DNA of 64,000 nucleotides, taken from positions 2,728,001 to 2,792,000 of the forward strand of contig NZ_CP074149.1 in the NCBI RefSeq assembly GCF_019968765.1, written 5' to 3'. Position 1 is the first letter of the stretch. Each line of letters opens with the position of its first letter. Source of the DNA: Enterobacter sp. JBIWA008 (lineage in GTDB: Bacteria; Pseudomonadota; Gammaproteobacteria; Enterobacterales; Enterobacteriaceae). Both the position numbers and the translations under genes were made by a program. Shown here piece by piece: positions 3,727 to 64,000 of this stretch. The notes under the pieces were generated by a model. That model did not search any database. It saw only the letters and a list, made by a program, of their open reading frames with translations, and was not told the DNA's origin.

Positions 3727-4266
3727 ATGAAGCAGTTTCTTGATTTTTTACCGCTCGTGGTCTTTTTTGCTTTTTATAAGCTTTACGATATTTATGCCGC
3801 GACCACTGCGCTGATCGTTGCAACCGCCGTCGTGCTGATCTACAGCTGGGTTCGCTATCGTAAAGTCGAAAAAATGGCGCTGGTTACCTTCGTTCTGGTC
3901 GCCGTATTCGGCGGGCTTACGCTGTTCTTCCACAACGATGAGTTTATTAAGTGGAAAGTGACCGTTATTTACGCGTTGTTTGCGGGCGCATTGTTAATTA
4001 GCCAGTGGGTCATGAAAAAGCCGCTGATCCAGCGCATGCTGGGCAAAGAGCTGACGCTGCCTCAGGAAGTCTGGTCCCGTTTGAATATCGCCTGGGCGAT
4101 CTTCTTTATTCTCTGTGGTCTTGCCAATATCTATATCGCCTTCTGGCTGCCGCAGAATATCTGGGTCAACTTTAAGGTCTTCGGCCTGACCGCGCTGACG
4201 CTTATCTTCACGCTGTTAAGCGGCGTATACATCTATCGCCACATGCCGCAGGACGACAAGCACTGA
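3727..4266 (+). CDS. yciB: YciB, inner-membrane septation protein (IspZ family)
   Basis: A 179-residue integral membrane protein with about five transmembrane helices and the typical start [20 protein letters not shown]. The family is required for septation in Shigella, and E. coli YciB interacts with cell-elongation and division proteins and affects envelope integrity. Length equals the E. coli protein. It follows yciC after 56 bases and is followed by a strong hairpin before yciA. Confidence 0.95.
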
Positions 4267-8095: not shown

Positions 8096-9556
8096 ATGAC
8101 AACCTTCTACACCGTGGTGAGTTGGCTGGTCATTCTGGGATACTGGCTGTTAATCGCGGGTGTGACATTACGCATCCTGATGAAGCGCAGAGCCGTACCC
8201 TCTGCCATGGCCTGGCTTCTGATCATCTACATCCTGCCGCTGGTGGGAATTATTGCCTATCTCTCTTTCGGTGAGCTTCATCTGGGTAAACGCCGCGCCG
8301 AGCGCGCCCGCGCCATGTGGCCCTCAACCGCAAAGTGGCTGAACGATCTTAAGGCCTGCAAGCATATCTTCGCCGAGGAGAACAGCAGCGTCGCATCGTC
8401 ACTGTTTAAGCTGTGCGAGCGCCGTCAGGGGATTGGCGGTGTTAAGGGCAATCAACTGCAACTACTTACCTCGTCCGACGACGTCATGCAGGCGTTAATC
8501 CGCGATATTCAGCTGGCGCGTCATAATATCGAGATGGTTTTTTATATCTGGCAGCCCGGCGGGATGGCTGACCAGGTCGCTGAATCGCTGATGGCCGCCG
8601 CGCGGCGCGGCATTCACTGCCGCCTGATGCTTGACTCCGCAGGCAGCGTGGCATTTTTCCGTAGCCCCTGGGCGGGCATGATGCGCAATGCCGGGATCGA
8701 AGTGGTTGAGGCGTTGAAGGTGAATCTCCTGCGCGTGTTTCTACGCCGGATGGATCTCCGCCAGCATCGCAAAATGATCATGATCGATAACTATATTGCC
8801 TACACCGGCAGTATGAACATGGTTGACCCGCGCTTCTTCAAGCAGGACTCGGGCGTGGGCCAGTGGGTGGATTTGATGGCGCGAATGGAAGGGCCGATTG
8901 CCACCTCGATGGGCATCGTTTACTCCTGCGACTGGGAGATTGAAACCGGCAAGCGTATCCTGCCGCCGCCGCCGGACGGCAATATTATGCCTTTTGAGGA
9001 GGCCAGCGGTCACACTATTCATACCATTGCTTCCGGGCCGGGCTTCCCGGAGGACTTAATCCATCAGGCGCTGCTGACAGCAACCTACTCAGCGCGTGAA
9101 TATCTGATCATGACGACGCCCTACTTCGTCCCCAGCGACGACCTTCTGCACGCGATCTGTACCGCCGCCCAGCGCGGTGTCGATGTGAGCATCATTTTGC
9201 CGCGTAAAAATGACTCCCTACTGGTAGGCTGGGCCAGCCGGGCATTCTTCAGCGAACTGCTGGCCGCCGGGGTGAAAATTTACCAGTTTGAAGGCGGATT
9301 GCTCCACACCAAGAGCGTTCTCGTCGACGGTGAACTGAGCCTGGTGGGCACGGTCAATCTGGATATGCGCAGCCTGTGGCTAAACTTTGAAATCACTCTG
9401 GTCATTGATGATGCCGGCTTTGGCGGCGATCTGGCAGCGGTGCAGGATGATTATATCTCCCGCTCGCGTCTGCTGGATGCCAGACTGTGGGTAAAACGTC
9501 CGCTGTGGCAGAGAATTGCCGAACGACTGTTTTACTTCTTTAGTCCGTTGCTGTAA
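8096..9556 (+). CDS. clsA: Cardiolipin synthase A
   Basis: A 486-residue inner-membrane enzyme that joins two phosphatidylglycerol molecules to give cardiolipin and glycerol. Two N-terminal membrane helices (about residues 5-27 and 37-58) precede two phospholipase D domains with HKD motifs: [18 protein letters not shown] starting at His224 and [18 protein letters not shown] starting at His404. Length equals E. coli ClsA. It is followed after 33 bases by yciU, as in E. coli. Confidence 0.97.
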
Positions 9557-60701: not shown

Positions 60702-61145
60702 TTACGCCCTCTTGCGCAGATAGAACTCAAGGTATTTTTTAGGTCTATCCTGAAACGCACGCTCTTTGCCGTAGTTATAAGCATCGTTGAAATATTTATA
60801 CGCTTCATCGAATTGATTCAGCTCGTAACAGACCATACCCAAGTCGATTGATGGTGCAGTGTCTATATCCGATCCACGTGTGCGCAACGTCGTCTCTCCC
60901 CATTTCTTCGCCTCATCGTAATCCTCAAGATCAAAGTAAGCGCTGTACATGCACGCAGCGATCCAGTTAGCAAATTCCGATTCAAACTTTGGCTCAGGAA
61001 GAGCTTGCCAGGCTTTTTGGTATTGCTCTAAAGCTTCGGCGTATTTTTGGTTGTCGTGAAACTCGTTTCCTTTTTCTACAAGAGATGTAAATCTTTTTTC
61101 ATCGAATTTATAGCATACGTTTTTCATATATTTATTCATTATCAT
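60702..61145 (-). CDS. Tetratricopeptide-repeat protein near the Rhs tip
   Basis: A 147-residue protein with two or three TPR helix pairs: LVEKGNEFHDNQKYAEALEQ (about 22-41), then YDEAKKWGET, and LGMVCYELNQFDEAYKYF. No signal peptide. AGGAGG at 61157-61162 is 11 bases before ATG 61145; other ATGs are close by. It is AT-rich, downstream of the SUKH-like gene in the same direction, with a 96-base gap. It may be a second immunity-type or accessory protein of the Rhs module, or a remnant immunity gene of an earlier tip; its function is unknown. Confidence 0.8.
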   Translation of the reverse strand: MIMNKYMKNVCYKFDEKRFTSLVEKGNEFHDNQKYAEALEQYQKAWQALPEPKFESEFANWIAACMYSAYFDLEDYDEAKKWGETTLRTRGSDIDTAPSIDLGMVCYELNQFDEAYKYFNDAYNYGKERAFQDRPKKYLEFYLRKRA

Positions 61146-61241: not shown

Positions 61242-61805
61242 CTAACCAAAAAAGAAATATTTAAAAGCTTCTGCCTCAACATCCTTAAGCTTGCTTTTTA
61301 GCATTAAATCGATATCTTCCAGAAAGTCCTCTCTGAAATTAAAATCATCATCTGTAGCATCACCATCATATTTACTTTGCTCTATCTCAATGGCAGAACA
61401 AAAAGCATCCAAAAAGTCGGCTAACGAATTGGAAATAATGAAATTTCTTTTTTGAATACTACCATAAACAGGAGATGTAATATTTTGGGTATCACAAAAA
61501 AGAACATCTCCATTTCTTTCAGCAAAGATTATATATTCATCTCTCCAGGTCGTGTCATTTTGAACTCGCCAGCCTGATAACATTTCATTAAGCTCTTGGG
61601 ACTCAACAATCTGTATAAAGAAAGTACCATCAAATGTTGGGTGGTCATTTAAAATCAAATGGCTATAAAAAAAACGAATTTCGCCATTTAAATTCACTGG
61701 AAAAGAAGTTTCATTTTCATCGTCTGTATAGTCTATCTCTCCCATATTTAAATCATTCATTTTGAATTTGCTAACAAAGTCTTGGACTGCATTTTTTATG
61801 TTCAT
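61242..61805 (-). CDS. Putative immunity protein, SUKH-like
   Basis: A 187-residue acidic protein (pI clearly low, many Asp/Glu) that follows the Rhs gene with an 8-base gap and GGGGGTAAG just before ATG 61805. Aromatic beta-rich patterns (WRDEYIIFAERNGDVLFCDT, SPVYGSI) and the helix NSLADFLDAFCSAIE look like SUKH (SMI1/KNR4) immunity proteins, which often pair with HNH-type nucleases. The assignment is by resemblance, not search. Position directly after a toxin tip supports an immunity role. It would protect the cell from the Rhs nuclease. Confidence 0.78.
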   Translation of the reverse strand: MNIKNAVQDFVSKFKMNDLNMGEIDYTDDENETSFPVNLNGEIRFFYSHLILNDHPTFDGTFFIQIVESQELNEMLSGWRVQNDTTWRDEYIIFAERNGDVLFCDTQNITSPVYGSIQKRNFIISNSLADFLDAFCSAIEIEQSKYDGDATDDDFNFREDFLEDIDLMLKSKLKDVEAEAFKYFFFG

Positions 61806-61813
61806 CTTACCCC

Positions 61814-64000
61814 CTATAATTGCTTACATCGTTGTCTGGATTTTAGTGTTCTTTCTCTATCGATTAAGCGCCCGCGCGTCGAGTTTTTAGTATTCCCTCT
61901 ATGTCCTTGATCACCATGGACATGCTCATTGAACTTGTCGGGATGGTTATGATTTTTCAAGAAAACAATATTCCTCGGATCACCTTGCCATTTAGAACCA
62001 AGTGTACCATTGCCTTCTACCGAGTTGATATGATGCCCAGTATAGCCTGCCCGTGACATCACGGAGGTAAGACTCTTGTTCGGAGTCTTCAATATTAAAT
62101 CTCTCTCTTGCGCTGTCCAATTCCTGGTCCCAGCCCCACCATCCTGCAATAAGGCTTTTTCTTGCACCCATGCCCTAGAGATAGCAGAGCTTCTAGCTCC
62201 GTTTTGAGCAGAAAGAGAATCGTGTGGGCGGTAGCGAATCAGATCTTCAGGAGTTAACCCCCACGGATCCACCCACCCCAGTGCATTCGGCGCATACTGG
62301 TAAAGGTTTATCCCCCCCGCCAGCCCTATCGGGTCCTGCTGAGTAAATCTTCCGCAGTCCGGGTCGTAATACCGGAACAGATTGTAGTGCAGCCCTGTCT
62401 CACGGTCCAGGTATTGCCCCTGCATGCGCAGGTTCTGAGAATATCCTGATACCTGCGTCTCGCTTTCACGCAGCAGCTTGCCCCAGGCGCTGTTCACGCC
62501 TTCCCAGCGCACCTGCCCTTCGATATCCGTCATCCGCTCCGGCGTGCCGTTGGGCTGGCAGTGGAACCAGAAGATCTCCGGGGCATCAACGCCATCAATA
62601 CGCGCCAGCGGATCGTAGCTGTCCTGATCGCTGTAGACGTAGGTCAGCGGCACATCCCCGTGCACCTCCTGCAACAGGCGGAACCCTTCCCAGACAAACC
62701 GGGTGGTGACCGGCTTGCCGGTTGGCTGTCCGCCCAGCATCTGGCGTCGCGTTTTGCTGATGCGTCGCCCGAGCGGATCGTAGCGGAAGCTGACCTGCGT
62801 CTGCGGCTTGTTGCGGTCCCGCGGCTGGCTGATGACCTCCGTCAGGCGATGTTCACCGTCGTAGCGGTAGTGCCAGCGCGTCTGGCCGTTATCCTTCTCC
62901 ACGGTGCGGCCGTGGATGTCATAGCGCCAGCGAACGCCGTTCAGCTGCGTCAGGCGGTTGTGCGTGACCTTCTCAGCAGATCCTTCCAGCGGGTTGCCGG
63001 CTGCATCCCAGCGCCACTGCTCCTGTCCGGGCAGCGTGCCGTCCTGAACCAGCAGACGACCGGCGCTGTCGTACTGCCAGCGGTACCAGCTGAACGGGTT
63101 ATCGTCCCGCTCTTCTCGGACCAGGTTATTGCGGTAGTCGTAATCCCAGCGGCGGGACCAGCGGCGCGGCGACGGGCGCTGGGCATTGCCGGTAAATACG
63201 TCCCGGCGATGCAGTCGGCCGAGGCGGTCGTATTCGCTGCGGGTGGTCAGCAGCCCCTGGGTGCGGCTGGTCTCCCGGTGGAGTTCGTCGCGGGTAAAGT
63301 CGGAGACCGACAGCTTATCGAGAGCAATGCTGAGCAGATGCCCGCTGCCGTAGTAAAACTGCTTCAGCTCGCGGCCGTCGGGAAGCGTGATAGAGGTGCG
63401 ATTACCCAGCGCGTCATACTCCCACGCCAGCTCGCCGTGCTCGCCCGCTTCGCGCGTCACGCGACCAAGCGCGTCATACTCAAAGGCGAGCTCCTGCTCT
63501 GCCTCGGTGGTCCACGCGTCGGCTGCAAGCGCAGGATGCAGCCCAATCCGGCTTAACAGTCCGGACGGCGTGTAGTGGTAGCGGGTCTGCCCTTCCGGGG
63601 TGATGCGGGCGACCAGCTGGCCGCTCGCGCTCCAGGCGAAGGCGTGGGTGATGGCCTCCGGATGACCGGCTGCAAACGTGCGCGCTATCGTGCGCCCGCA
63701 GGCGTCGTAGCGATACTGCGAGGCCACGCCATCGAGCCCAATCTCTTCCAGCAGCAGCGAGTCCGCGCCCCAGCGGAACTGGTACGCTTCACCGTTTTCG
63801 TTTTCCAGGGCAATCAGACGCCCGCGGCTGTCCCAGCGGCGACGGACCTCTTCACCCTGGGTATTACGGGTGGCGGTTAAGCGCCCCGCCTCGTCGTATC
63901 TGAACTCACTCTCTTTACCGTCGGCGCCAGCATGCTTCACCGGCAGGCCACGTTCGTTCCATTTGAGCGATTCCGTCCAGCCTTCCGGACGATCGAGCTG
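61814..64000 (-). CDS. Rhs protein, C-terminal part with GHH/HNH-type nuclease tip (5' end outside window)
   Basis: The 3' part of an Rhs gene, 728 codons in the window; the frame stays open through base 64000. Many YD-repeats are visible (YDALGRVTREAGEHGE, YDGEHRLTEV). The core ends with RYYDPDCGRFTQQDPIGLAG and DPWGL (near 62250), the usual cleavage point, with Ala where many Rhs proteins have Pro in PxxxxDPxGL. The last 146 residues are unrelated tip: GYTGHHINSVEGN, WQGDPRNIVFLKN and histidine-rich GDQGHRGNT, consistent with a GHH-type HNH nuclease. The tip DNA is more AT-rich than the core. Rhs proteins are delivered by type VI secretion to rivals; delivery by this one is inferred. Confidence 0.9.
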   Translation of the reverse strand, partial: QLDRPEGWTESLKWNERGLPVKHAGADGKESEFRYDEAGRLTATRNTQGEEVRRRWDSRGRLIALENENGEAYQFRWGADSLLLEEIGLDGVASQYRYDACGRTIARTFAAGHPEAITHAFAWSASGQLVARITPEGQTRYHYTPSGLLSRIGLHPALAADAWTTEAEQELAFEYDALGRVTREAGEHGELAWEYDALGNRTSITLPDGRELKQFYYGSGHLLSIALDKLSVSDFTRDELHRETSRTQGLLTTRSEYDRLGRLHRRDVFTGNAQRPSPRRWSRRWDYDYRNNLVREERDDNPFSWYRWQYDSAGRLLVQDGTLPGQEQWRWDAAGNPLEGSAEKVTHNRLTQLNGVRWRYDIHGRTVEKDNGQTRWHYRYDGEHRLTEVISQPRDRNKPQTQVSFRYDPLGRRISKTRRQMLGGQPTGKPVTTRFVWEGFRLLQEVHGDVPLTYVYSDQDSYDPLARIDGVDAPEIFWFHCQPNGTPERMTDIEGQVRWEGVNSAWGKLLRESETQVSGYSQNLRMQGQYLDRETGLHYNLFRYYDPDCGRFTQQDPIGLAGGINLYQYAPNALGWVDPWGLTPEDLIRYRPHDSLSAQNGARSSAISRAWVQEKALLQDGGAGTRNWTAQERDLILKTPNKSLTSVMSRAGYTGHHINSVEGNGTLGSKWQGDPRNIVFLKNHNHPDKFNEHVHGDQGHRGNTKNSTRGRLIDRERTLKSRQRCKQL

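What the first reader, a model, noticed from the sequence alone, without database searches (positions are those of the whole stretch)
61242..62260. Rhs tip with GHH nuclease signature and adjacent SUKH-like immunity gene
The 146-residue tip after DPWGL bears GHHI, a downstream DPRNIVFL block and clustered histidines, which fits the GHH branch of HNH toxins. The next gene starts 8 bases later, with its ribosome site overlapping the toxin stop, and looks like a SUKH immunity protein. The DNA switches from GC-rich core to AT-rich tip, as expected after tip exchange. The exact toxin-immunity combination may not have been described.
Basis: partly seen in the sequence, partly recalled or inferred. 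Interest (0 to 1): 0.7.

Follow-up and report, generated by a model that had tools for sequence, protein, structure and literature searches.

The report
Rhs nuclease tip with SUKH immunity
This is the killing tip of a bacterial weapon protein, predicted to cut DNA, followed by the gene that likely protects the producer; it is a typical example of a described toxin-immunity combination, with an unnamed branch of the immunity family as the only small novelty.

Summary
On the minus strand, an Rhs protein ends in a 146-residue tip after DPWGL. A 187-residue ORF begins 8 bases after the tip's TAG stop. GC falls from 64% (in-window core) to 46% (tip) to 32% (downstream gene). The tip is a Tox-GHH nuclease domain: PF15636, 43.3 bits against a cut-off of 25, with all five published family motifs. 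Its model matches the teneurin Tox-GHH region best and colicin DNases only weakly. The 187-residue protein has no Pfam hit of its own, but its confident model (pLDDT 92.5) matches Knr4/SMI1, YobK and Syd: SUKH-like. The complete gene is a 1474-aa PAAR-Rhs effector behind VgrG and EagR-type genes, so type VI delivery is likely. Tox-GHH on Rhs with SUKH immunity was tabulated in 2012 (PMC3482391), and Enterobacter cloacae RhsB is reported to carry Tox-GHH (PMC10763514). New member of a known kind. The small new point is a SUKH-like branch, unlabelled in Pfam and NCBIfam, that recurs next to Tox-GHH tips, also in distant bacteria.

The parts
61814..62260 (-). Tox-GHH HNH/EndoVII nuclease tip of the Rhs protein (148 residues from the G of DPWGL to the end)
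61242..61805 (-). SUKH-like immunity gene, 187 aa
62261..64000 (-). Rhs core (in-window part) of the same 1474-aa gene; the gene continues beyond the window end (L002:3815-8239)
   Evidence: RHS_repeat, PF03527, Rhs_assc_core; full gene with PAAR motif and DUF6531
61806..61816 (-). Toxin stop TAG, G-rich ribosome-site-like stretch and spacer before the immunity ATG
   Evidence: sequence printed
60702..61145 (-). 147-aa TPR protein 96 bases downstream; possibly an orphan immunity gene, not shown to be part of the pair
   Evidence: TPR hits; the homologue in G427 is split over two frames and the one in G416 is a short ORF

Best explanation
A type VI secretion PAAR-Rhs effector whose swappable tip is a Tox-GHH metal-dependent DNase, encoded with its own SUKH-fold immunity protein. 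Most likely course: the EagR-type protein (PF08786) helps load the effector; the PAAR domain seats it on VgrG; the Rhs shell encloses the tip; cleavage near DPWGL frees the tip; in a neighbouring cell the tip cuts DNA with its GHH histidines; the 187-aa protein binds and blocks the tip in siblings and in the producer. Shown here: domain identities, gene order, motifs, predicted folds and the exchange boundary. Inferred from the families: DNase activity, delivery, cleavage, binding and protection.
Confidence: 0.9

Rival explanations
1. The 187-aa gene is an orphan SUKH gene that merely landed behind the tip; the real protector is another gene, such as the TPR gene downstream.
For: In 8 of 13 genomes or contigs the family has no GHH tip directly upstream; a TPR gene follows 96 bases after it.
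Against: The 8-base spacing recurs exactly in G427 and G416; relatives lie directly behind GHH tips in Gilliamella, G736, Bernardetia and Burkholderia; the TPR gene is split over two frames in G427 while tip and 187-aa gene are open there; Tox-GHH with Imm-SUKH is the tabulated association.
Confidence: 0.06
2. The tip is a decayed or non-catalytic GHH domain that binds rather than cuts, as proposed for the animal teneurins.
For: The teneurin domain is the closest solved structure.
Against: PMC3482391 says the eukaryotic versions lack the conserved histidines and a C-terminal helix; here GHH and EH are kept, the model ends in a helix at residues 135-147, and the frame is open.
Confidence: 0.03
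3. The tip is an RNase of the HNH fold rather than a DNase.
For: PMC9990079 notes that domains with this fold can cleave different substrates, including rRNA (passage).
Against: Tox-GHH of E. cloacae RhsB is called a DNase (passage), and purified teneurin C-terminal domains cut DNA (abstract).
Confidence: 0.07

Closest known systems
Tox-GHH (Pfam PF15636) on RHS proteins with Imm-SUKH, Zhang et al. 2012 (PMC3482391; passages seen)
   Same: Domain, five motifs, RHS carrier, T6SS among the listed delivery routes, SUKH immunity
   Different: The immunity protein falls in a branch that the Pfam and NCBIfam models do not score above threshold
Enterobacter cloacae ATCC 13047 RhsB (Donato et al. 2020, not held, nothing seen; described in PMC10763514, passages seen)
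   Same: T6SS Rhs effector, Tox-GHH tip after DPxGL, EagR-type gene upstream (PMC4524185 passage)
   Different: Its sequence was not compared here; whether tip and immunity are the same alleles is unknown
Acinetobacter baumannii Tde6 group (PMC6833914; passages seen)
   Same: Rhs T6SS effector with Tox-GHH, predicted DNase
   Different: An A. baumannii tip is 55% identical and its neighbour scores only weakly with this immunity family. That this tip belongs to Tde6 was not tested
Teneurin C-terminal Tox-GHH domain
   Same: Fold and faint sequence similarity
   Different: Animal receptor; conserved histidines lost according to PMC3482391
SUKH superfamily (Knr4/SMI1, YobK, Syd)
   Same: Predicted fold
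   Different: 10-14% identity to those chains; not recognised by Pfam for this sequence

Membership tests
Tox-GHH (PF15636) | Profile score above the curated cut-off | tested here: met
   43.3 bits against 25
Tox-GHH (PF15636) | Motifs WxxE, W, G[HQ]H, NIxF, [DE]H (PMC3482391) | tested here: met
   WVQE 31-34, W48, GHH 75-77, NIVF 97-100, EH 112-113
Tox-GHH (PF15636) | HNH/EndoVII fold | tested here: met
Tox-GHH (PF15636) | Nuclease activity | not testable with these tools
   Needs an assay
SUKH immunity superfamily | SUKH fold | tested here: met
SUKH immunity superfamily | Sequence match to a SUKH profile above cut-off | tested here: not met
   0 families for the window protein; 13 of 24 members weakly match SMI1_KNR4, best E 0.0013. 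This lowers the claim of a named SUKH family, not of the fold
SUKH immunity superfamily | Gene directly downstream of a nuclease toxin | tested here: met
   8-base gap; recurs in other loci
SUKH immunity superfamily | Neutralises the cognate toxin | not testable with these tools
   Needs co-expression
T6SS PAAR-Rhs effector | PAAR, DUF6531, RHS repeats, DPxGL boundary | tested here: met
T6SS PAAR-Rhs effector | VgrG and EagR-type (PF08786) genes upstream | tested here: met
   L002:10957-12879 and 8243-8728
T6SS PAAR-Rhs effector | Structural T6SS gene cluster in the genome | not tested
   Only L002 was read; it holds a VgrG and two PAAR proteins; sheath and membrane-complex genes were not looked for

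The most novel reading that the evidence does not exclude
The 187-aa protein defines an unlabelled SUKH-like subfamily that has stayed with Tox-GHH tips across distant bacteria (Enterobacterales, Burkholderia, Bacteroidota) and also travels alone as an orphan defence gene, so one immunity lineage may have co-evolved with one nuclease clade instead of being reassorted.
Probability: 0.5. Interest if true: 0.3.

Novelty: new member of a known kind. Interest (0 to 1): 0.2.

Why it matters
It supplies a clean example, probably from Enterobacter, of a Tox-GHH/SUKH pair with the exchange boundary visible at DPWGL, and a seed for a profile of a SUKH-like branch that Pfam and NCBIfam models miss. It does not change the understanding of polymorphic toxins.

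Tried and rejected
NCBIfam gave nothing for tip or immunity. PADLOC gave two weak hits for the tip (E 0.0088 and 0.02), taken as chance. The immunity sequence alone matched no solved structure; its profile gave two marginal hits, 9lgi, an HNH nuclease domain-containing protein (E 0.0046), and 2fyw (E 0.086), not followed up. No match to the 3401-base region or to the pair in E. coli genomes. The Pfam Tox-GHH model is found in 1 of 392 family genomes, the window's own, and the tip in 2 of 369 class genomes, the other being a weak match (E 5e-4, L029) in which I saw no ORF hit and which I did not pursue, so genome sampling gave few tip-led loci. Profile comparison with seven SUKH-1/6-type proteins was weak. 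The alignments used 23 of 43 immunity homologues and 33 of 53 tip homologues plus the query; those left out were mostly short pieces or near copies. E-values are for a small set of ORFs, so bits are quoted. A model of the pair as a complex was not attempted: the tool folds one chain and the two genes are in different frames. The second A. baumannii record (H2) was not fetched. The paper search listed 30 of 36 papers; PMC9635880 was not opened.

Full report
What is there. On the minus strand, an Rhs ORF ends at 61814 and a 187-codon ORF runs from 61805 to 61242. The junction reads TAGGGGGTAAGATG, so a G-rich ribosome-site-like stretch overlaps the toxin stop and eight bases separate stop and start. 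After DPWGL, 146 residues remain. GC is 0.641 in the in-window core, 0.456 in the tip and 0.323 in the next gene; of 1260 windows of the same size, 1.1% are as AT-rich as the pair.

The whole gene. The window lies in a 5.08-Mb genome with a single PF03527 (RHS) match. The complete Rhs gene is 1474 aa, with PAAR motif, DUF6531, RHS repeats, RHS domain and Tox-GHH. Upstream on the same strand are a PF08786 protein, three ORFs without Pfam hits at E 0.01 and a VgrG. PMC4524185 (passages) places EagR proteins in this Pfam family and reports that EagR1 is needed for deployment of its Rhs effector.

Does the pair recur? Tip-led evidence, not selected for the neighbour: the plasmid collection held 5 matching records, of which I read 4. 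With the immunity profile the next gene scores 95.7 bits in Bernardetia (where the tip is split over two frames), 32.2 bits in Burkholderia glumae (no Pfam hit) and 11.0 bits in A. baumannii (weak, no SUKH hit in Pfam). In Tenacibaculum it does not match this profile but is SMI1_KNR4 at 41.1 bits. Immunity-led evidence: 13 genomes or contigs hold the family (Gilliamella L003 and G688 are counted once because contig length and genes agree). A GHH tip lies directly upstream in 5: the own genome, G427, G416, one of two copies in Gilliamella and G736. The Gilliamella tip ends early and the G736 tip is split over two frames. In the other 8 I found no GHH tip directly upstream, so the gene often travels alone, for instance behind an LHH tip with its own SUKH_6 gene in G075.

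Tip exchange. Against G427 the whole gene and the following 700 bases align at 95.7%. Against G075 and a second Rhs fragment of G416, alignment stops at nucleotide 3983 of the own gene, inside the Leu codon of DPWGL (3982-3984); a short alignment to G422 stops at 3975. The core is shared and the tip differs, as expected for exchange of C-terminal modules.

How it works. Shown: domains, order, motifs, predicted folds, exchange boundary. Inferred: loading on VgrG with EagR help, enclosure in the Rhs shell, cleavage near DPxGL, DNA cutting in the target, protection by direct binding. PMC10763514 (passages) reports that autoproteolysis frees the RhsA tip in E. cloacae and that RhsB carries a Tox-GHH DNase domain after DPxGL; the primary paper was not held. 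PMC5898268 (abstract) reports that purified teneurin C-terminal domains cut DNA.

Novelty. PMC3482391 lists Tox-GHH with RHS repeats, T6SS and Imm-SUKH, and lists Tox-GHH among toxins of Imm-SUKH (passages). The combination is described; this is a new member of a known kind. The remaining small novelty is the SUKH-like branch that Pfam and NCBIfam do not score. That the organism is an Enterobacter is an inference from named close homologues; no tool named it.

Noticed in passing
window 60702-61145 (-): 147-aa TPR protein 96 bases downstream of the immunity gene; its homologue is split over two frames in G427 (L019:2820-3262) and is a short ORF in G416 (L020:6588-6851). May be an orphan immunity gene.
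   Followed up: partly
L002:14509-17746 (-), beyond the window end: Second likely T6SS effector set: PAAR protein with ADP-ribosyltransferase domain, an ADP-ribosylglycohydrolase gene next to it as likely immunity, and a PF08786 protein. Resembles Tre1/Tri1 (recalled).
   Followed up: no
L002:8759-11000 (-): Three ORFs between VgrG and the EagR-type gene (358, 188 and 176 aa) without any Pfam hit at E 0.01.
   Followed up: no
L020 (G416:C1:2629500-2640000): Several Rhs C-terminal fragments in a row, two of them with different tips, one of these the GHH/SUKH pair.
   Followed up: partly
L005:5235-10855, Serratia proteamaculans: Two copies, about 3.28 kb apart, of a tip and immunity cassette; the relative of the window's immunity gene is split over two frames in both.
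   Followed up: no
L025:7857-10058 (G368): Cluster of small immunity-like genes (88 aa, the 194-aa relative, 117 aa, and an SMI1-type 120-aa gene on the other strand) without a GHH tip: perhaps an orphan immunity island.
   Followed up: no
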